The notes beneath the pieces are model-generated. The model searched no databases. It was given only the letters and a program-made list of their open reading frames with translations, and was not told the origin of the DNA. Shown piece after piece: positions 8,956 through 45,462 of a stretch of DNA of 64,000 bases. Source of the DNA: Pomphorhynchus laevis (taxonomy: Eukaryota > Acanthocephala > Palaeacanthocephala > Echinorhynchida > Pomphorhynchidae). The stretch lies in contig WNNJ02002380.1 in assembly GCA_012934845.2 (NCBI GenBank), positions 62,001-126,000 of the forward strand. Reading direction: 5' to 3'. Position 1 is the first letter of the stretch. The number at the start of each line of letters is the position of its first letter. Both the position numbers and the translations under genes were made by a program.

Positions 8956-10533
8956 TGATCACTATGAACTTCCTAGCGTATCAAGTCCTTAAAAGGATAG
9001 CGATCAGTCATTTTCATCTGATCACCCTATATTATCCAGTGTCGAATTATCTGTTCTGGATGTATTCGATGAGCTTAGAAAATCAAAACCTTCGTCCATT
9101 AGTGGTCCTGATAATATACCATCGATCGTATTGCAAGAGGCTGCATCAGCACTATGCTTTCCGCTTTGGCTTATTTACCATTGCTCCATAGATTCAGGAA
9201 TTTTACCTTTTGAGTGGAAAAAAACACCATTAAGCCCATTTTCAAGAAATGGTCAAGATCTGCTGCTGGGAATTATAGACCCGTGAGCCTTACTTGTGAG
9301 GCATGCAAGATTCTGGAAAAGCAAATTTTGCGCTCTCTGACATCATACCTAAAAAAATATTGTATTCTAAATGTTCATCAACATGGTTTCCGACATGGGT
9401 GGTCCACTACTACTAATTTAGTTAGTGCACGGGCTAGCTCGTGTGATTCCTTGAAAGCTGGACATGGAGTTGATATTCTGATTTTCGATTTATCAAAGGC
9501 CTTCGATAGGGTTAATCATACCATTTTAATTAAATTATTTGTTGTGGACATTAGAGGTAGTATCCTTCGATGGTTAAATTGTTTCCTCCAAGATAGGTTA
9601 TTTGCGATGAAAGTTAAAAACACCTTATCACGTTGGCGAACAATGTCGAGTAGCGTATCTCAAGGTTCAGTCATAAGTCCTACTCTGTTCAACATAAATG
9701 TCAATGACATATGTCATGTCAATTGCTCATTTTTGATGTACGCCGATGATATCAACATTTGGAATGATGTTCGGGATCTTTCAGATCATAACCGGATTCA
9801 GAAGGACATAAATTTCATACACTCATGGTGCAACTCACATGATCTTACTATTAACATAGAGAAGACCTATCACATGCATTTAGGTCAATTGATGTACTCT
9901 GGCTCGTACACTTTAGGCGGTGCTACCATTAAGAATGTTGATCAAGTCAAGGATCTCGGCATTATATTATCTAATAATCTGTCATCGGGTCTTTATGTAA
10001 GATATATTGTAAGCAAATATCAACGTATTCTAGGGCTACTACAAAGAACGCTAGGTTCAATAGATGTTGACTCATTTAGGGTGCTGTTTCCCTAGATTGT
10101 CCTTTCTCATATGCTATATGCTTTATCAGCAGTCTTTCTGCAATCTAAGGGTGATTTGCGTTTACTTGAGGGCATTCTCCGTAAAGCTAGCCATATAGTT
10201 TTTTCTATTCGAGATATTCCCTACCCTCAGAGACTACACGTTCTAGGCAGCGATGTTGAGACGTCCTTAATTAAAGCAAATTTGATGTTGGTGTGGAGGA
10301 CACTGCACTCTTTTAAGCACATTTTAAACCCTTTATTTACACTTTTTGCTAATGAAAATCTACGAGGACACAATCTTAAACTTGTACACAAACTGAGACC
10401 AAAGCGAAACCGAGGTGACATAAGACATCGAATTGTCAAACATTGGAATAAATTACCATCTACTGTTGTTGAGGCCACACATGTATCAGAATTGAAGAAT
10501 TATCTTTGTGTTGAATTCCGCCTTGAATCCTGA
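8956..10533 (+). pseudogene. LINE-A ORF2 reverse transcriptase and C-terminal domain
   Basis: Continuation of LINE-A after the nested insertion. From 9034: LSVLDVFDELRKSK, SGPDNIPSIVLQ, ILPFEWKK, then a frameshift near 9225. The main frame 9214-10095 (293 aa) holds GNYRPVSLTCEACKILEK (fingers), QHGFRHGWSTTTNLV, FDLSKAFDRVNHTIL (motif A Asp), SVSQGSVISPTLF (usual VPQG, here VSQG), FLMYADDINIW (catalytic YADD), and LTINIEKTYHMHL. A stop at 10096 splits off 10111-10533 (140 aa), the C-terminal domain with LRKASHIVFSIRDIP and KHWNKLPSTVVEA. All catalytic Asp residues are present, but the frame is broken. The same broad group as the fragments at 1-790 and 26.8-27.3 kb. Confidence 0.85.
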
Positions 10534-14164: not shown

Positions 14165-14169
14165 GATAA
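14165..14169. repeat. Target-site duplication GATAA, left copy
   Basis: GATAA directly abuts the left LTR; the same 5 bases follow the right LTR at 18028-18032. A 5-bp duplication is usual for gypsy integrases. Confidence 0.9.
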
Positions 14170-14290
14170 TGTCGTAATGTAAACGAAGTCTAAACCAAAG
14201 AGGTTTTATTTATCAATCTAGAAAACAATCAGTTTATAAAAACAGTTATAGATACTCATGTCAATTAGAGATTATTGACTATATACCACA
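14170..14290 (-). repeat. gypsy-1 3' LTR
   Basis: 121 bp, TG...CA. Differs from the 5' LTR at two bases. Contains AATAAA on the minus strand within the ATTGATAAATAAA segment (14217 to 14205), a probable polyadenylation signal. The pol stop codon lies inside this LTR at 14279-14281. Confidence 0.95.
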
Positions 14291-16513
14291 TTCTTCCCCT
14301 ACATAATAGTTTGAAAGATAAGCAGGTTGACCTCGCTGTCTTTTACTTCTTCGTACCTCGTTGTTAGATTGGTTGACTTGAGTAGTAATCGTCTGCCTAT
14401 CCAAATTCAAGTTTGATTGGGTTGATGTAGCTTCTTCGTTGCTATTTCCGTCCATTGCTTGGGAGGAGGCTTCCTCAAAGTTTGATAAGTTAAGATCTTG
14501 GCTTATGGATGTCGTTGTTGGATGTAGGAATTCCTTTTGGTTAGTATTGTTTGACTCTGCTAATGTCGTTCCATCTTCTGGCCCGGACCACGACAATGAT
14601 AGTTGATCTTCAGGGCAAGGTGCTAAGTCCCGCGTTGAAACCGTGGAAACGTGCCCACTTTTTAGTTGTATTCTAGCGTAGTGCTGGTTCGATTCTAGCA
14701 ACAGTGCTTCTTGTACCACATTGTCTCCTTTATTACGACAACGAACCAGAACCGGCCCCAAATTTAAAAGCCAACTTGGTAGCGAACGGCCTGTTGAAGA
14801 TCCTCGGTCGTACTTGAGCATACGTTCATGAGGCGTTGCGTTGGTAGATGTACACAGCAAACACCGAATTGAGTTCAGCACAGAAGGCAAAACTGACGCC
14901 CAAGACTGTATTGGTAATTTCGCATCCAACACCGATAACTGAATTCCACGCCATATCGTTCCATTTAATCGCTCACATTGGCCATTGCCCCGCGGATTGT
15001 AAGAAGAAGTTTGGCTTGTAGCAATCCCAAGTGAAGATGTAAACACTTTGAATTCGCGTGACACAAAAGCGCTTCCTCGGTCTGAGTGCAAATATTTCGG
15101 TGTCCCAAAAAGGTAGAAAAGCTGCTTTAAGCATGTTATAACTGATTCGGCAGAAGTATCGCAACACGGAAATGCCCACGGAAACCTTGAAAACTCATCG
15201 ACGACCGTCAGTATATATTTTGCGTTTGTTTTACTGGGAAGTGGACCCTTGAAGTCGATTGACAAACGTTCAAACGGTTGAAGTGATTTGATTAAGACGC
15301 TGGTGGGAGGACGATAGAATCTCGGCTTTATCTTTGCACACGTTGAACAAGAGTTTACAACTTCCCGTATATCACTTAAAGAAAATGGCAAATTCTTCGC
15401 CCTGACATAATGCCACAATCTTGTCTGACCAGGATGACATAGTGAACGGTGTAATTTTATTAAGTCGGATTGAGAAGTCGTTACGCCGGAGCATGCTAGT
15501 CGTGATAAAGCGTCCGCTGCTACGTTGTCAACGCCGGGACGATAAATGATCTCAAAGCGAAATTGGGATAACTCTAATCGCCAGCGTTCAATTTTTTCAT
15601 TTTTTATCCTATTCGAATGTGAAGACATCATATAAGCAACTGATCTTTGATCTGTAATAACTCGAAATGGACGTCCAATGAGGTAGTGACGCCATTCTTT
15701 AAGAGCTTCAATTATTGCCAGAGCTTCTAATTCAATCGCTGGATTGCGCTTTTCATGTTTGGAACAGTACTCACGAAAAAAAGCAACTGGTCTACCACGC
15801 TGGCTCAAGGTAGCCGCTATCGCTACTTTTGATGCATCTGTCTCTACTTCAAACGGTAAATTTTCATCTATACACGAACGGCAGGCACACATTAAAGCTG
15901 CTTTTATATCCTTCAAGCTCTTCATTGCTGATTCACCCATGGGAAAATTTGTCTCTGTAGCAAAATCTCGAGCGCGGTGCGCAAAACCAGGTATCCAGCG
16001 ACAATAGTAAGTTAACAACCCCCGCAGATGGGAATGTTCGGTTGCATCCGTCGGATTCTTGAGCTCGAAGATTGGTCTAGTTCGTCGTGGGTCGGGCTTA
16101 ATCATTCCGTTCTCAATACACTGTCCCAAAACGCTTATTGACTCGGATGCGAACACACTCTTGGTTTCGTTTAATGTTAGATGGTCTGCAATTAAAATGT
16201 CGTCGAGATACGAAAAGACACCAGACAATGCTTCTCTGTCAATTAAACTATTCATGATGCGCTGGAACACTGCTACACCGTTTGTGAGCCCGAAAGGCAC
16301 TCGTTTGTATTGATAAAGGCCTCCAACAGCCTCGAAAGCGGTGAACTCTTTTTCGGATTGTAAAATAGGTAGTTGATTGTAGGCATCTTTCATATCCACG
16401 CATGAGAATATTCGATAGTTCGAAAGCTTGTCTATTAAATCATCCGTTCGTGGCAAGGGAAATGCGTCGAGCAATGTGAATCGATTGATCGTCCGTGAAT
16501 AGTCGATCACCAT
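14279..16513 (-). CDS. pol: gypsy-1 pol: RT, RNase H, integrase (744-aa segment)
   Basis: The replication enzymes. The ATG at 16513 is internal (MVIDYS is the RT core); the natural frame runs from gag. RT: RFTLLDAFPLP, FSCVDMKDAYNQ (motif A), RVPFGLTNGVAVFQ, and catalytic SYLDDILIA at residues 101-109. Right after LIAD the text jumps to HLTLNE, so about 20 residues usual in the family appear deleted in frame. RNase H: TDAS (D226), ELEALAIIEAL, ITDQR (D288), VDNVAADALSR. Integrase: zinc ligands H355, H360, C389, C392; catalytic D420 (LSIDFKG), D478 (HSDRG), E514 (QCERLNG). The Ser/Asn-rich C-terminus ends YYVGEECGI, its last codons overlapping the polypurine tract and LTR. Upstream stops at 16559-16561 and 16577-16579 separate it from gag. 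Confidence 0.92.
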   Translation of the reverse strand: MVIDYSRTINRFTLLDAFPLPRTDDLIDKLSNYRIFSCVDMKDAYNQLPILQSEKEFTAFEAVGGLYQYKRVPFGLTNGVAVFQRIMNSLIDREALSGVFSYLDDILIADHLTLNETKSVFASESISVLGQCIENGMIKPDPRRTRPIFELKNPTDATEHSHLRGLLTYYCRWIPGFAHRARDFATETNFPMGESAMKSLKDIKAALMCACRSCIDENLPFEVETDASKVAIAATLSQRGRPVAFFREYCSKHEKRNPAIELEALAIIEALKEWRHYLIGRPFRVITDQRSVAYMMSSHSNRIKNEKIERWRLELSQFRFEIIYRPGVDNVAADALSRLACSGVTTSQSDLIKLHRSLCHPGQTRLWHYVRAKNLPFSLSDIREVVNSCSTCAKIKPRFYRPPTSVLIKSLQPFERLSIDFKGPLPSKTNAKYILTVVDEFSRFPWAFPCCDTSAESVITCLKQLFYLFGTPKYLHSDRGSAFVSREFKVFTSSLGIATSQTSSYNPRGNGQCERLNGTIWRGIQLSVLDAKLPIQSWASVLPSVLNSIRCLLCTSTNATPHERMLKYDRGSSTGRSLPSWLLNLGPVLVRCRNKGDNVVQEALLLESNQHYARIQLKSGHVSTVSTRDLAPCPEDQLSLSWSGPEDGTTLAESNNTNQKEFLHPTTTSISQDLNLSNFEEASSQAMDGNSNEEATSTQSNLNLDRQTITTQVNQSNNEVRRSKRQRGQPAYLSNYYVGEECGI
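14291..14300 (-). promoter_or_regulatory. gypsy-1 polypurine tract
   Basis: Minus-strand AGGGGAAGAA directly abuts the 3' LTR; the plus-strand DNA primer is expected to be left here by RNase H. It is also coding (pol C-terminus). Confidence 0.85.
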
Positions 16514-16576: not shown

Positions 16577-17887
16577 TTATATGATGCCGTTTTCGAGAAG
16601 TCGCTTTACTTCTGATTTAATAAATGCGTCCTGACTAGGAGTTCGTCGACAAGATTTTGTTTGCAATGGACGAATATCGATACTCCTATGTTCAAATAAC
16701 GGATGTGGTTCAACATGCATTGCTTCCAGGGCCCCAATAACAATCGGTGCATGCATTCCTCCAAACTCCAGTGCAAGATGCTTGAAACGCCTGAGAAAAG
16801 GATGGCCCAAAATTACATCAGCACAAAGGTTGTCTAGAACAAAACACTTGACACCATAATATTTTTCGCCCATTAGCTCCAAATCGAGAGCAACTGTTTC
16901 CCTCAAAACGCTTTGAAAAGAAGACGATGCCATCCGAGCAATTTCGTAACACTTAGTAGTTGACCGTTTACAACGTTTTATCATGTTTGACGATATAAAA
17001 TTTGAACTGCTACCAGTATCTATCAGAGCATTCATTTTGATACCGTAAGCCATTATAGAAACCATGGCGTTCTTGAGACCCGGAGAAGAAAGCTGTGAAA
17101 TTTGAGCAATCTCTATTGAATTCAAGTCAATCGAATTGCGCTTCCTGGACATGCACATTTTGGCAAAATGACCGACTTTTTGACACGATCGGCATTTAAC
17201 TTTTAGCGCCGGGCATTGGGCTCGAGGATGTTTTGCATTTCCACAGAAGAAACAAGATTGACGGGTAGCATTAACTTGAATTGCCGGAGAGTCGTCCGTC
17301 ATATTTTCACTACTAGCTACAACATTAATAGGATCCATCATTTGCACAGGTTGACAAGAGTACGAGTTAGCTTGTAATTCGGCCTGTTCAAGCGATCGAG
17401 CAGCTTGAAAAGCGTCGTCAAGCGAAAGCTTTGACCGCTCCAATAAACGTTGACGGATGCTCGAAAAAGCCAACCCTCGAATAAACGAATCGCGAACGTA
17501 CTCATCGTGATAACGCTTCGCATTTACATCCTCAAAATCACATGATTTTGCTAAATGCAGTAGTTCATGTAGAAACTGATCAATGGTTTGTGGATAAGCT
17601 TGCTTGTACGTTGACAAAACGTGTCGTTGAAACACCACATTGCGCGGCTTTACGAACAAAGCCTCTAGAGCAAGCATTGCATCTGCAAATATTTCGGTAG
17701 ACTCGATGTATCGAAACAGATCTGCACTGATCAGGTTCGTTAATAGTGGCATTTTATGCTCTTCTCTAAGATCGGGAATACAAGAAAGAAACGCATTTAA
17801 TCGAGTTTTCCAATGCCTCCACTGTGTTTCTGAATCCGTCGAATCCTTTGACAATGAAAGCACATCTGGTTTCAACAGCTTGTCCAT
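16577..17887 (-). CDS. gag: gypsy-1 gag-protease (436 aa)
   Basis: Starts at the ATG 19 nt after the 5' LTR. Residues 1-170 form a helical Gag core (WRHWKTRLNAFLSC, IRGLAFSSIRQRL). Two perfect CCHC knuckles follow: CFFCGNAKHPRAQC and CRSCQKVGHFAKMC, for RNA packaging. The aspartic protease has ALIDTGSSSNFIS (catalytic Asp) and a distal ILGHPFLRR, where His stands in for the more usual xDFL. The frame then enters the RT linker (SEVKRLLENGII) and hits TAA at 16577-16579; a second in-frame TAG lies at 16559-16561, before the RT core. The stops look like point changes, not a frameshift: the frame is identical on both sides. Gag resembles the decayed gags of gypsy-2 and gypsy-3. Confidence 0.93.
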   Translation of the reverse strand: MDKLLKPDVLSLSKDSTDSETQWRHWKTRLNAFLSCIPDLREEHKMPLLTNLISADLFRYIESTEIFADAMLALEALFVKPRNVVFQRHVLSTYKQAYPQTIDQFLHELLHLAKSCDFEDVNAKRYHDEYVRDSFIRGLAFSSIRQRLLERSKLSLDDAFQAARSLEQAELQANSYSCQPVQMMDPINVVASSENMTDDSPAIQVNATRQSCFFCGNAKHPRAQCPALKVKCRSCQKVGHFAKMCMSRKRNSIDLNSIEIAQISQLSSPGLKNAMVSIMAYGIKMNALIDTGSSSNFISSNMIKRCKRSTTKCYEIARMASSSFQSVLRETVALDLELMGEKYYGVKCFVLDNLCADVILGHPFLRRFKHLALEFGGMHAPIVIGALEAMHVEPHPLFEHRSIDIRPLQTKSCRRTPSQDAFIKSEVKRLLENGII

Positions 17888-17892
17888 AACAA

Positions 17893-17905
17893 ATTGATAA
17901 ATAAA
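17893..17905 (-). promoter_or_regulatory. Putative self-primer binding site of gypsy-1
   Basis: Leader TTTATTTATCAAT (minus sense) begins one base after the 5' LTR and is perfectly complementary to ATTGATAAATAAA within the LTR (17954 to 17942). No tRNA 3'-end complement (TGG...) is seen at this place. See finding on self-priming. Confidence 0.6.
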
Positions 17906-17906
17906 T

Positions 17907-18027
17907 TGTCGTAATGTAAACGAAGTCTAAACCAAAGAGGTTTTATTTATCAATCTAGAAAACAATCAGTTTATAAAAACTGTTATAGATACTCATGTTA
18001 ATTAGAGATTATTGACTATATACCACA
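17907..18027 (-). repeat. gypsy-1 5' LTR
   Basis: 121 bp, TG...CA. On the minus strand a TATAAA box spans 17975 to 17970. The self-complementary segment begins 21 nt after the start of this box, so transcription plausibly begins in or near it. The segment holds AATAAA, usable as poly(A) signal in the 3' LTR. Confidence 0.93.
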
Positions 18028-18032
18028 GATAA
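18028..18032. repeat. Target-site duplication GATAA, right copy
   Basis: Matches 14165-14169. Confidence 0.9.
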
Positions 18033-18124: not shown

Positions 18125-18445
18125 TCAAGGGGGATCTGAGCCCCCCCAACCGATCCAACACGCCGCCTTCCGACTGAACCACCCGGGGTCTTTCACCCCC
18201 CGAAGAATCCAATCGGCGCGGACTATGCTGGGTAAACGAGAGACGAGGAGCTTAAGAAACCTTAGCCTTTGCTCTGGGGGACGTCCTCTTGAAAAGAAGA
18301 CTAATCCCGAGATAGCCCAGGTGCCCCAAAGGCGCACCTGGGTTTTTCCTTTCAATGACAGATGCTGGGCCCGTTTCAGGGCCCACCTAGCTTTCTTCAG
18401 AATACGTTTAAGTCTATCCAGGTCAGCTTTCGCCGACCAGTTCAC
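18125..18445 (-). CDS. LINE-C copy 1 ORF2 C-terminal domain (106 aa)
   Basis: Reads NWSAKADLDRLKRILKKARWALKRA, then QVRLWGTWAISGLVFFSRGRPPEQRLRFLK and LPSIVRADWILRGVKDPGWFSRK. This is the highly conserved end of LINE-C ORF2; the same block is found at 44146-44510, in part at 51100-51450 (+), and at 21887-22076 (+). No zinc knuckle is present. Function in the family: nucleic-acid binding after the RT, not otherwise known. Confidence 0.7.
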   Translation of the reverse strand: MNWSAKADLDRLKRILKKARWALKRAQHLSLKGKTQVRLWGTWAISGLVFFSRGRPPEQRLRFLKLLVSRLPSIVRADWILRGVKDPGWFSRKAACWIGWGGSDPP

Positions 18446-21828: not shown

Positions 21829-21904
21829 TTTTCTAGAGGACGTCCTTTGGTCTTATTTTCTAGAGGACGTCCTTTGGTCTTATTTTCTAGAGGACGTCCC
21901 CCCA
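21829..21904. repeat. 27-bp tandem repeat, 3 units
   Basis: CTAGAGGACGTCCTTTGG-type units start at 21833, 21860 and 21887 with period 27. The GAGGACGTCC core is the coding sequence of the LINE-C C-terminal RGRPPEQ segment, so the repeat grew at the 5' truncation point of the adjacent LINE-C fragment. Confidence 0.9.
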
Positions 21905-22175
21905 GAGCAAAGACTAAGGTTTCTTAAGCTCCTCGTCTCTCGTTTACCCAGCATAGTCCGCACCGACTGGATTCTTCGGGGGGGGGGGTGAAAGACCCCG
22001 GGTGGTTCAGTCGGAAAGCGGCGTGTTGGATCGGTTGGGGGCTCAGATCCCCCTGGATTTGAGGCCGTGATCATGGAAGAAGACTTAACTTGCTGTGCTG
22101 TTTATTTCCTTTGATTTTCTGTAACTGCCCTGTTATTTATTTATATTAAGAAAATCTTTATTATTATTCTAACTC
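21887..22175 (+). mobile_element. LINE-C 3' fragment (+), C-terminal end and 3' UTR
   Basis: Plus strand codes GRPPEQRLRFLKLL, LPSIVRTDWILRG up to a stop, then a 3' UTR ending ATTTATTTATATTAAGAAAATC as in copy 2 (43997-44150). A G-run near 21980-21989 probably caused a frameshift. It is inverted relative to copy 1 (18114-21760). Confidence 0.8.
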
Positions 22176-23170: not shown

Positions 23171-23347
23171 TTGCGCCATACCCTTCCTTGAAGGGTATCC
23201 ACACCCTTCCTTGAAGGGTATGGATACCCTTCCATGAAGGGTTGCGCCATACCCTTGAAGGGTATGGATACCCTTCCTTGAAGGGTTGCGCCATACCCTT
23301 CAAGGAAGGGTTGCGCCATACCCTTCCTTGAAGGGTATGGCGCAACT
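23171..23347. repeat. Palindromic minisatellite
   Basis: Repeated CCCTTCCTTGAAGGG (nearly self-complementary) alternates with linkers TATGGCGCAA and TATCCACA, TATGGAT. At least eight CCCTTC...GAAGGG blocks in mixed orientation, with variants CCCTTGAAGGG and CCCTTCAAGGAAGGG. It directly precedes LINE-D. Spacers are not unique sequences, so this is not a CRISPR array. Confidence 0.9.
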
Positions 23348-24187: not shown

Positions 24188-24889
24188 TTGCCTGCTCAAA
24201 TAGTGGAGTTGAAGTATTACATGCTTTCTCATTTGTATGACATTTTCTACGTTGCTGAATCCTGGTTTCATCAATATATTGTCGATATCACTGTCAACAT
24301 TCCTGGATTTCGCCTTCTACAAAGCGACAGAATATCGGGTAGGCGAGGTGGCGGTGTCGCCGCATATGTCAGAGAAAATTTTCTCGTATCTGAAGTGTTG
24401 AATGTTTGTGACTCTTTTGGGTCGTTTGAGACTCTATGCTTCCGTATCGATCACTCAGCTACCAGTATGAATTTCTGCGTCGTGTGTCTATCTCCGTCAG
24501 TAATTGCAGATACTGATCAACTAAAACTTATTTTACAATCGGTATGTTCCTCCCCTCACTTTATTCTTTTGGGCGATTTTAATCTTCCACGATCTAGATG
24601 GTCAGACAATGTCTTTTCTGATGGTAGTTCCACGGAAAGGGAAATATCTGAGGTCCTAGCTGAGGAACTCATGCTGATTCAGCACGTACAAGAACCAACT
24701 TGCTTAACTTCAAGATCGGATTCGGTACTTGATCTGGTGTTTTCCAGATATGTAGGAGACATAATCAAAGTTGATCATATCCCTCCTTTAGGAAGTAGTG
24801 ACCACTGCTTGCTCTCCTTGACGGCTGTCCCTTATTCCAGATTCTGTCCACCTAGCTCAAAATCTTCAAACGTCATTGGTCGAAAGTGA
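24188..24889 (+). CDS. LINE-D endonuclease domain (233 aa)
   Basis: AP-type endonuclease. Motifs: LYDIFYVAESWF (the usual LTETW, here VAESW, keeping Glu), GFRLLQSDRISGRRGGGVAAYV, HFILLGDFNLPRSRW (GDFN), SDSVLDLVFSR and LGSSDHCLLSL (catalytic SDH). All core catalytic residues are present. The preceding bases 24160-24187 in another frame read YLSFWYSNRS, the expected N-SRS start, so a frameshift lies at about 24180. It continues into the decayed EN-RT linker. Confidence 0.85.
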   Translation: MPAQIVELKYYMLSHLYDIFYVAESWFHQYIVDITVNIPGFRLLQSDRISGRRGGGVAAYVRENFLVSEVLNVCDSFGSFETLCFRIDHSATSMNFCVVCLSPSVIADTDQLKLILQSVCSSPHFILLGDFNLPRSRWSDNVFSDGSSTEREISEVLAEELMLIQHVQEPTCLTSRSDSVLDLVFSRYVGDIIKVDHIPPLGSSDHCLLSLTAVPYSRFCPPSSKSSNVIGRK

Positions 24890-31931: not shown

Positions 31932-32633
31932 ATGCAATACGCCGATGACATTCTAATCTATGCTCATGCACCCGCACATCGCATACACGATATCGGCATT
32001 TCTGCCTCCTACTGTCTTTCTTCTATCTACAAACGTCTCTCCAATCTCCATATCGTTCTAAACCCCGATAAGTCCAAAATAATGTGGATCCTCCCCCGTA
32101 AACCAAACATATCTCCTCCCGCTGTATGTTTTGCCGCATCGATCATCCCCATAGTCCACAATCTCACTTTCTTAGGCTTCCATTTCGATGATCACCTTTA
32201 CCTTAAACCCTTCGTCAGTGACAAGGTCCGCTCATCTAACTTAATTCTCCGTGACATCCGCCGTATCCGCCCCCTTATCGACTTCCGTTCTTGTATGTCT
32301 CTTCTTTCATCGCTTCTTTTCTCTAAAATCGATTACTGCCTTAGCCTTTTCGCCAATTCTCCAAAATCCATCATCCTACCCCTACAACGAATAATCAACA
32401 CCGCCGTTCGAGTGCTCTTTCGTCTCCGTCGCTTCGACCACACATCCACATATTATTGCCCAACTCTCCTGGCCCACCATCCATGTCCGCATCAAACTCC
32501 GCCTTCTTCTCGTTACCTTACGTCTCATCGCTGTCGGCTCCCCATCGTTCATCAACCTTCCTTTCTTAGACGATACTCGCCCCACCTCGCTATCGCTTCG
32601 TTCCTGTCATACCCTCTTACTCCACGTTCCTAA
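31932..32633 (+). CDS. LINE-B copy c RT palm/thumb (233 aa)
   Basis: Holds the catalytic QYADDILIYAHAPAHRIHDIG, NLHIVLNPDKSKIMWILPRK, NLTFLGFHFDDHLYLKPF (thumb) and YCLSLFANSPKSI, LQRIINTAVRVLFRLRRFDH. A small indel near 32455 shifts the C-terminal domain to another frame (equivalent to 8402-8878 in copy 1). Confidence 0.8.
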   Translation: MQYADDILIYAHAPAHRIHDIGISASYCLSSIYKRLSNLHIVLNPDKSKIMWILPRKPNISPPAVCFAASIIPIVHNLTFLGFHFDDHLYLKPFVSDKVRSSNLILRDIRRIRPLIDFRSCMSLLSSLLFSKIDYCLSLFANSPKSIILPLQRIINTAVRVLFRLRRFDHTSTYYCPTLLAHHPCPHQTPPSSRYLTSHRCRLPIVHQPSFLRRYSPHLAIASFLSYPLTPRS

Positions 32634-44634: not shown

Positions 44635-45462
44635 TTAAATAAGGTTGGACTTGGGAAGATGGTCTTTTAATCTTAAAAAGAACTGGCAGATGTCAGAGAC
44701 TACGTCTTTGCACCTGCGTCCAGAAAACAGGGCTGTGGTATCATCAGCGTATACCACTAGACGTTTTTCGCGTTTAAATATTTTGAACAGTTGAATGAAG
44801 GCAGCAAGATACACGATAGGAGAAAGTGGTGAACCTTGAGGCACTCCTGTAATAGGGTAGAACTGACGTGCATCAGGGTCGTCTTCATAGAAGAATCGCT
44901 TGGTGTACAACAGTATCTCTACCCTGTTAACAATTCTCGCAGGCAACCCGAGGGACCTGAGAGAAGAGATCACAAAGGGAATGGAGATACGGTCAAATGC
45001 GGCAGAGAAATCAAGGAAAACAGCCACAACGAGTTGATTGCTATTCTCTTGACAAAACTGCTGCACCTCCCCAACTGTTGAATGGATTGAGCGACGTTTG
45101 ACGAACCCATGGAAACCAGGTGGGATTAAATTATACCTACTTAGATGGACGCGCATTCTACGCGCAAGCGCTTTTTCGTCGATCGAAACGAGGGAATTTT
45201 GAATCGAGATGGGCCGCAGGTCGTTTGGAGAGCGAACCGGACTTATCTTAGGGATAAAAATTCTCTTGTTTGTATTGATGACGGCTACATCAGAGGGCGA
45301 TGCTAAAAGCATAGTGACGGCCACTTCTCTCTTTAGATCAGCTGTCAAAAGCTGACAGACCTGAGAAGAGAGTGGAGCGGTGGACTTGGAGGTGCCCGGA
45401 AGAGGACCCCAGGCATTCAGGATCTCTGGAACAGAGAGATCCCTACTCCTGAAGTATCCCAA
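44635..45462 (-). CDS. LINE-C copy 2 reverse transcriptase (275 aa)
   Basis: Intact RT core. Order: MGYFRSRDLSVPEILNAWGP, INTNKRIFIPKISPVRSPNDLRPISIQNSLVSI (fingers, LRPIS), GFHGFVKRRSIHSTV, LVVAVFLDFSAAFDRISIPFVI (motif A), FYPITGVPQGSPLSPIVYLAAFI (motif B side), RLVVYADDTTALFSGRRCKDVV (catalytic YADD), LKDHLPKSNLI. All three catalytic Asp residues are present. The natural frame extends both ways: EN upstream and C-terminal domain downstream, each after one small frame change. Confidence 0.88.
   Translation of the reverse strand: MGYFRSRDLSVPEILNAWGPLPGTSKSTAPLSSQVCQLLTADLKREVAVTMLLASPSDVAVINTNKRIFIPKISPVRSPNDLRPISIQNSLVSIDEKALARRMRVHLSRYNLIPPGFHGFVKRRSIHSTVGEVQQFCQENSNQLVVAVFLDFSAAFDRISIPFVISSLRSLGLPARIVNRVEILLYTKRFFYEDDPDARQFYPITGVPQGSPLSPIVYLAAFIQLFKIFKREKRLVVYADDTTALFSGRRCKDVVSDICQFFLRLKDHLPKSNLI

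What the first reader, a model, noticed from the sequence alone, without database searches (positions are those of the whole stretch)
17888..17975. gypsy-1 may prime reverse transcription with its own RNA (Tf1-like self-priming)
Seen: 19-nt leader; the 13 bases TTTATTTATCAAT (17905 to 17893, minus) start one base after the 5' LTR and are exactly complementary to ATTGATAAATAAA inside the LTR (17954 to 17942), which lies 21 nt after the start of a TATAAA box (17975 to 17970). There is no tRNA-like TGG primer site. Known: in Tf1/sushi elements the 5' end of the RNA folds back onto a primer-binding site adjacent to the LTR. Inference: same strategy here, in an animal element whose gag and pol form one frame, as in Tf1.
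Basis: partly seen in the sequence, partly recalled or inferred. Interest (0 to 1): 0.78.

Follow-up and report, generated by a model that had tools for sequence, protein, structure and literature searches.

The report
Animal retrotransposons that prime themselves
A family of jumping genes of animal type, and many of its relatives, seem to start copying their RNA into DNA by folding back the start of their own RNA instead of borrowing a cellular tRNA, a trick known so far mainly from a different, fungal and fish, branch.

Summary
The window holds a 3.86-kb Ty3/gypsy LTR element (121-bp LTRs, 5-bp TSD). Its 13-nt primer-binding site (PBS) starts one base after the 5' LTR and is the exact reverse complement of an LTR segment. 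Of 38 insertions of the family, 34 keep the match; 4 have one private change. The strong evidence lies between families. In 43 of 60 further gag-flanking pieces of the same genome the leader pairs with its own LTR over at least 11 nt, against 29 of 3,000 shuffles. Two elements from other assemblies do so too. In 17 families with 14 different primers, cognate primers and PBSs fit (216 of 221 positions); none of 200,000 re-assignments reached that. RNAalifold finds the same helix, 9 of 14 pairs with compensatory changes. Twenty host tRNAs match the leader by at most 6 nt. So it works like Tf1/sushi self-priming, but is not shown to be a Tf1/sushi element: no chromodomain, and its RT lies in a clade of animal type apart from Ty3 and its fungal, plant and algal relatives (100/100). 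New details: the primer ends at the poly(A) signal and begins after TTNTAG. The RNA 5' end is unknown.

The parts
17907..18027 (-). 5' LTR, 121 bp, TG...CA
   Evidence: 2 differences in 121 from the 3' LTR
14170..14290 (-). 3' LTR, 121 bp
18028..18032 (.). target-site duplication TTATC, upstream copy
14165..14169 (.). target-site duplication TTATC, downstream copy
17942..17954 (-). self-primer segment in the LTR, ATTGATAAATAAA
   Evidence: exact complement of the PBS; same layout in 17 families
17942..17947 (-). AATAAA poly(A)-signal hexamer forming the 3' end of the primer
   Evidence: sequence; primer ends on or within one base of AATAAA in 15 of 17 families
17955..17960 (-). TTCTAG directly before the primer: TTNTAG motif, initiator-like or 3' splice-site-like
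   Evidence: TTNTAG in 12 of 12 families whose pairing ends at TAG
17970..17975 (-). TATAAA, starting 21 nt before the primer
17982..17987 (-). TATAAC, starting 33 nt before the primer (better spaced TATA-like box)
   Evidence: sequence
17888..17906 (-). 19-nt leader between LTR and gag ATG
17893..17905 (-). primer-binding site TTTATTTATCAAT, one A after the LTR end
16577..17887 (-). gag-protease ORF (436 aa; CCHC zinc knuckle, aspartyl protease)
14279..16513 (-). pol ORF (744 aa; RT, RNase H, integrase core), same frame; this copy also lacks about 19 residues after the YLDD motif that other copies have
   Evidence: the gap inferred from match coordinates and the alignment
14291..14300 (-). 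polypurine tract AGGGGAAGAA before the 3' LTR

Best explanation
This is a Ty3/gypsy LTR retrotransposon that primes minus-strand DNA synthesis with its own RNA. The first 13 or so nt of R (ATTGATAAATAAA) fold back onto the PBS next to U5. The RNA is cut after AATAAA, in Tf1 by the element's own RNase H (recalled; a 1996 title in the reference list seen says so), and the new 3' OH is extended through the single A and U5. Because the next plus strand copies the primer, the PBS is rewritten from the primer in each cycle, which would explain why the two covary so exactly. Shown: the pairing, its fixed position, covariation, poor tRNA matches. Inferred: cleavage, extension, rewriting, and an RNA 5' end at the TAG just before the primer.
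For: Exact 13-nt complement at the PBS position. 34 of 38 family insertions keep it. 43 of 60 leader pieces of other copies and families have at least 11 nt, versus 29 of 3,000 shuffles; the 43 carry 11 different primer strings, one of them in 15 pieces. Cognate pairing 216 of 221 positions in 17 families, 0 of 200,000 re-assignments as good. Both-side changes at 9 of 14 pairs in an unforced RNAalifold structure. Two elements from other assemblies, 46-47% identical in RT, with different primers and the same layout. Of the 43 PBSs, 40 have an A before them and 41 a CA before that base. tRNA match at most 6 nt.
Against: No RNA or cDNA data: the RNA 5' end, the cut and the extension are unseen. 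17 of 60 pieces lack an 11-nt match. Of the first 13 five-prime pieces 6 lacked one: L089, L096 and L097 hold it with mismatches, L085 has lost most of the LTR, and in L091 and L098 no gag start was found, so those two copies stayed untested. The 17 representatives were picked because they pair, so 216 of 221 is not an unbiased rate; the re-assignments test only whose partner fits. The families are related, so these are not independent trials. The fold of the window leader alone is modest (z -1.83, 10 of 200 shuffles as good). Only 20 tRNAs (12 anticodons, no Leu) were compared.
Confidence: 0.88

Rival explanations
1. tRNA priming: a full or half tRNA binds the leader, and the LTR/leader complementarity is incidental.
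For: Most LTR elements do this (recalled); Mag-lineage mosquito elements have tRNA-Leu or tRNA-Ser sites (PMC3286476 passages).
Against: No TGG in the 19-nt leader. The longest match of 20 host tRNAs (12 anticodons), internal parts included, is 6 nt. It does not explain covariation in 17 families.
Confidence: 0.03
2. The helix is real and selected but serves another step (packaging, dimerisation, translation or poly(A)-site control in the 5' LTR), while priming is unknown. The AATAAA in the helix would fit masking of the 5' poly(A) signal.
For: The primer ends on or within one base of AATAAA in 15 of 17 families; poly(A) hairpins in R are known in retroviruses (recalled).
Against: The 3' arm sits one base after a CA (41 of 43 pieces), or directly or one base after the measured LTR end in the window family and two others (in a fourth family the measured repeat runs into the PBS), where a PBS belongs; no other PBS was seen in the window leader.
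Confidence: 0.07
3. Self-priming as above, but the primer's 5' end is made by splicing: TTNTAG| is a 3' splice site where a spliced leader or upstream exon is joined, so the primer would carry extra RNA at its 5' end.
For: T-rich tract, T at -6 and -5, free -4, then TAG in 12 of 12 families resembles a 3' splice site (the profile is recalled); pairing stops exactly there; branch-point-like motifs upstream by eye, not scored.
Against: No common leader sequence follows the PBS beyond T or TG. In one family only about 35 nt of LTR lie upstream, room for a core promoter but hardly for an outron. -3 is T in 12 of 12, never C. YTAGATT also fits an initiator. The bdelloid leader was not found in the genome at up to 3 mismatches; other leaders were not tried. 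Host unknown.
Confidence: 0.18
4. Chance match in AT-rich DNA.
For: For the window alone 2 of 20,000 LTR shuffles reach 13 nt.
Confidence: 0.005

Closest known systems
Tf1/sushi chromoviruses (Tf1, Tf2, Tj1 of fission yeasts; sushi of fish; Tcn1-like plant elements)
   Same: PBS beside the LTR complementary to a segment of the element's own LTR; Tj1 also has a stop at the end of gag (PMC4600332 passages; PMC6317226 passages)
   Different: No chromodomain; RT in a separate clade of animal type; primer ends at AATAAA; one base between LTR and PBS in the window family; LTRs of 85-121 bp in the four families measured
Mag lineage of animal Ty3/gypsy
   Same: Animal hosts; mosquito families listed with one or two ORFs and LTRs from 145 bp up; clear AATAAA and no conserved TATA box in Mag A LTRs (PMC3286476; PMC3601003; passages)
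   Different: Mosquito Mag elements have tRNA-Leu or tRNA-Ser sites (one tRNA-Arg); kinship with Mag was not tested by tree
TAR lineage of plant Ty1/copia (Houba, Osr-1)
   Same: Predicted self-priming outside the chromoviruses (PMC6317226 passages)
   Different: Different superfamily and hosts
Fungal GalEa copia elements with a Conserved Hairpin Site
   Same: No tRNA PBS, a hairpin after the 5' LTR (PMC5445492 passages)
   Different: Both arms lie downstream of the LTR; the authors found no complement in U5

Membership tests
Ty3/gypsy (Metaviridae) | gag, then protease-RT-RNase H-integrase between TG...CA LTRs with a short TSD | tested here: met
Tf1/sushi group | PBS next to the LTR complementary to the element's own LTR | tested here: met
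Tf1/sushi group | Primer is the 5' end of the RNA, cut by RNase H | not testable with these tools
   no RNA or enzyme data
Tf1/sushi group | Chromodomain at the integrase C-terminus | tested here: not met
   no chromodomain at E up to 10 in the window integrase piece or up to 1 in two relatives; PF00385 in 0 of the 120 relatives listed of 973 found
Tf1/sushi group | RT groups with chromoviruses | tested here: inconclusive
   window clade of 18 rows apart from 22 others (yeast Ty3, fungi, plants, algae, an ant- and a tick-labelled row, unnamed rows) at 100/100, but Tf1 and sushi were not in the tree
Mag lineage | PBS complementary to tRNA-Leu or tRNA-Ser | tested here: not met
   no TGG in the leader; tRNA-Ser matches 5 nt at most; tRNA-Leu was not in the set
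Mag lineage | RT phylogeny | not tested
   no Mag reference sequence was in hand

The most novel reading that the evidence does not exclude
Self-priming is the ancestral mode of a large animal-wide, non-chromoviral Ty3/gypsy clade, an origin separate from Tf1/sushi, and its primer is bounded by two host RNA-processing signals: a 3' splice acceptor (or initiator) at its 5' end and the poly(A) signal at its 3' end. If the 5' boundary is a trans-splice acceptor, self-priming would let the element tolerate a foreign leader, since everything 5' of the primer is cut away from the template.
Probability: 0.2. Interest if true: 0.87.

Novelty: new variant of a known kind. Interest (0 to 1): 0.73.

Why it matters
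Self-priming is described for the Tf1/sushi chromoviruses and a few plant groups. Here it appears in about 15 families of one genome and in two elements from other assemblies. The clade has listed relatives in insects, molluscs, cnidarians, echinoderms and tunicates, whose leaders I could not read. If general, tRNA-based annotation misses the PBS of a common animal clade; such elements would escape control by tRNA fragments; and the origin of tRNA priming could be tested on a tree. The boundary of the complement may also give a way to read RNA 5' ends from genomes.

Tried and rejected
Viral-contig scans with the window RT and the RT alignment: 7 and 148 stretches matched a pattern, none was confirmed as a relative. 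L101, a 30% relative from the genome-contig scan, showed no match of 9 nt or more in the 480 nt that I scanned and lies on the Ty3 side. Host identification: named relatives of a non-LTR RT in the window are two flatworms (Trichobilharzia, Spirometra), a bacterial MAG and a bird, at 32-39%. A degraded COX1-like piece reads TGA at Trp positions and has five of six AGG codons at Ser positions, which suits several invertebrate codes and not the cnidarian or tunicate one. Pomphorhynchus laevis was considered and dropped: 260.3 Mb in 4,021 contigs (passages) against 249.4 Mb in 3,242 contigs. The bdelloid spliced leader was not found. Papers on Cer1 trans-splicing and a tapeworm TRIM, passages only, gave no precedent. 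Searches (wrong frame; bad terms) failed; two papers by Levin's group are not held. L102 was fetched and not used.

Full report
What is there. On the minus strand, 18027-14170, lies a 3,858-bp Ty3/gypsy element. The LTRs are 121 bp, TG...CA, with 2 differences, and the TSD is TTATC. The gag-protease ORF is 17887-16577 and the pol ORF 16513-14279, in the same frame. This copy is broken: a stop separates the two ORFs, and about 19 residues just after the YLDD motif, present in other copies, are missing (inferred from match coordinates and the Ty3 alignment). Other copies have open frames of up to 1,235 codons.

By itself it is unlikely but not impossible: 2 of 20,000 shuffled LTRs reach 13 nt or more with the leader, and the single-strand fold is only modestly better than shuffles (z -1.83, 10 of 200 as good).

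Within the family. In the 98 loci then held, 47 matches of LTR plus leader were near full length and gave 38 distinct insertion contexts; 34 have the exact pair and 4 carry one private change in primer or PBS, one of them a deletion. These come from the best-scoring 40 of 108 candidates, so worn copies are under-sampled. The family is too uniform for covariation.

Between families in the genome. Related RTs at about 49-66% identity were found. Of 13 five-prime pieces of such copies, 7 showed an exact pair of 11 nt or more (printed with a filter for ATAA in the primer; one search had none). L089, L096 and L097 hold the pair with mismatches; L085 keeps 19 nt of LTR; in L091 and L098 no gag start was found. 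Over the first five families cognate pairs were 64 of 65 Watson-Crick, and 1 of 120 assignments, the true one, reached that. Two searches with gag N-termini (150 places scored each) listed more. From them I took 60 pieces, leaving out rows that looked like families A, E and G; several of the 60 are copies of one family. Without any primer filter, 43 of 60 have at least 11 nt and 37 at least 13 nt of complement ending near the gag start; dinucleotide shuffles gave 29 and 6 of 3,000. The 43 hold 11 primer strings, one in 15 pieces. Of 321-nt window tiles, 27 of 796 reached 11 nt, the element and other repeats included. Of the other 17 pieces, 5 keep 9-10 nt at the right place; 11 of the 17 were printed in context: by eye seven show the same pair with one or two changes, two have an altered LTR end and two are badly worn; the other 6 were not looked at further.

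Other assemblies. A genome-contig scan with an RT alignment returned three loci. L099 and L100, contigs filed under bacterial MAGs but carrying elements at 47 and 46% identity to the window RT, have their own primers of 14 and 13 nt; in both the PBS lies one base after ACA, the presumed LTR end. L099 groups with a sea-anemone protein in the tree. L101 does not show it.

Together: 17 families as I grouped them by eye, one well-kept representative each, 14 different primers, 216 of 221 cognate Watson-Crick positions against a mean of 158.4 and a maximum of 192 in 200,000 re-assignments. The representatives were chosen because they pair, so the number to weigh is the contrast with re-assigned partners. 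RNAalifold on nine sequences predicts the helix unprompted, with both-side changes at 9 of 14 pairs. L100 is misaligned there and counts as gap or break at many pairs.

Layout. The primer ends on or within one base of AATAAA in 15 of 17 families; the other two have AGTAAA and ATTAAA. The PBS follows a CA after one base in 41 of 43 pieces; the base before the PBS is A in 40 and G in 3. The LTR end was measured by comparing the two LTRs in four families only; in one of them (E, L087) the measured repeat includes that last A, in another (G, L079) it runs a few bases into the PBS. TAG stands directly before the primer in 39 of 43 pieces. In 12 of the 15 families of this genome the pairing stops exactly at TAG; in two it stops one base later, in one four bases later. 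In those 12 the motif is TTNTAG. The base after the PBS is T in all 12 and TG in nine (read). I read the boundary as the RNA 5' end copied into the PBS. A start site with initiator YTAGATT is my default, since one family has only about 35 nt of LTR upstream. The splice-acceptor look of TTNTAG is the most interesting rival.

tRNA. Sixty-three tRNA genes were listed and 20 fetched, giving 12 anticodons. The longest complement to the leader region is 6 nt. tRNA-Leu and others were not in the set.

Placement. No chromodomain (none of the 120 relatives listed, of 973 found, bears PF00385). In that list the proteins named with an organism are from animals, apart from one filed under a bacterium. RT tree: 18 window-clade rows against 22 others at 100/100. 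Tf1, sushi and Mag were not available, so the clade has no name here. Published accounts seen as passages put self-priming in Tf1/sushi, Tcn1 and TAR elements (PMC6317226; PMC4600332) and tRNA-Leu/Ser in mosquito Mag elements (PMC3286476). In nine answered paper searches (seven of them on priming or LTR elements) I saw no report of self-priming in a non-chromoviral animal Ty3/gypsy element. The library is incomplete, and apart from the passages cited I saw titles and the starts of abstracts.

Verdict: self-priming very likely; a new variant of a known kind; not shown to be a Tf1/sushi member.

Noticed in passing
window 18143-18280 and 21899-22041: Inverted copies (85 and 59 nt, 96-98%) of a sequence with a tRNA-like stretch by eye (GGTTCAGTCGG...); with the 2,216 first-look candidates this suggests a tRNA-derived SINE beside the element. 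Rfam gave no match in the window.
   Followed up: no
window 9214-10092, 24188-24889, 31932-32633, 44635-45462: Reverse transcriptase and endonuclease ORFs of non-LTR type (the 31932 match is below Pfam's cut-off); named relatives of the first include flatworms and a bird.
   Followed up: partly
window 23186-23321: Short AAGGGT-type repeats, four copies of 44 nt.
   Followed up: no
G000:C347, C451, C894, C1077 and others; C505, C786, C1256 and others: Self-priming families with many copies that score alike in the searched part and have long open frames, so probably recently active.
   Followed up: no
L099, L100, L101: Contigs filed under bacterial MAGs that carry LTR-type elements; their ends overlap by 145-190 nt, as in circular collapse of an LTR element.
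   Followed up: partly
G000 families, base after the PBS: T follows the PBS in 12 of 12 families and TG in nine, opposite the G of TAG; unexplained (G-U wobble, shared ancestry or copied leader).
   Followed up: no
L163 (G000:C2953:1-520): Degraded COX1-like piece with TGA at Trp and AGG at Ser positions, probably a nuclear copy of mitochondrial DNA.
   Followed up: partly
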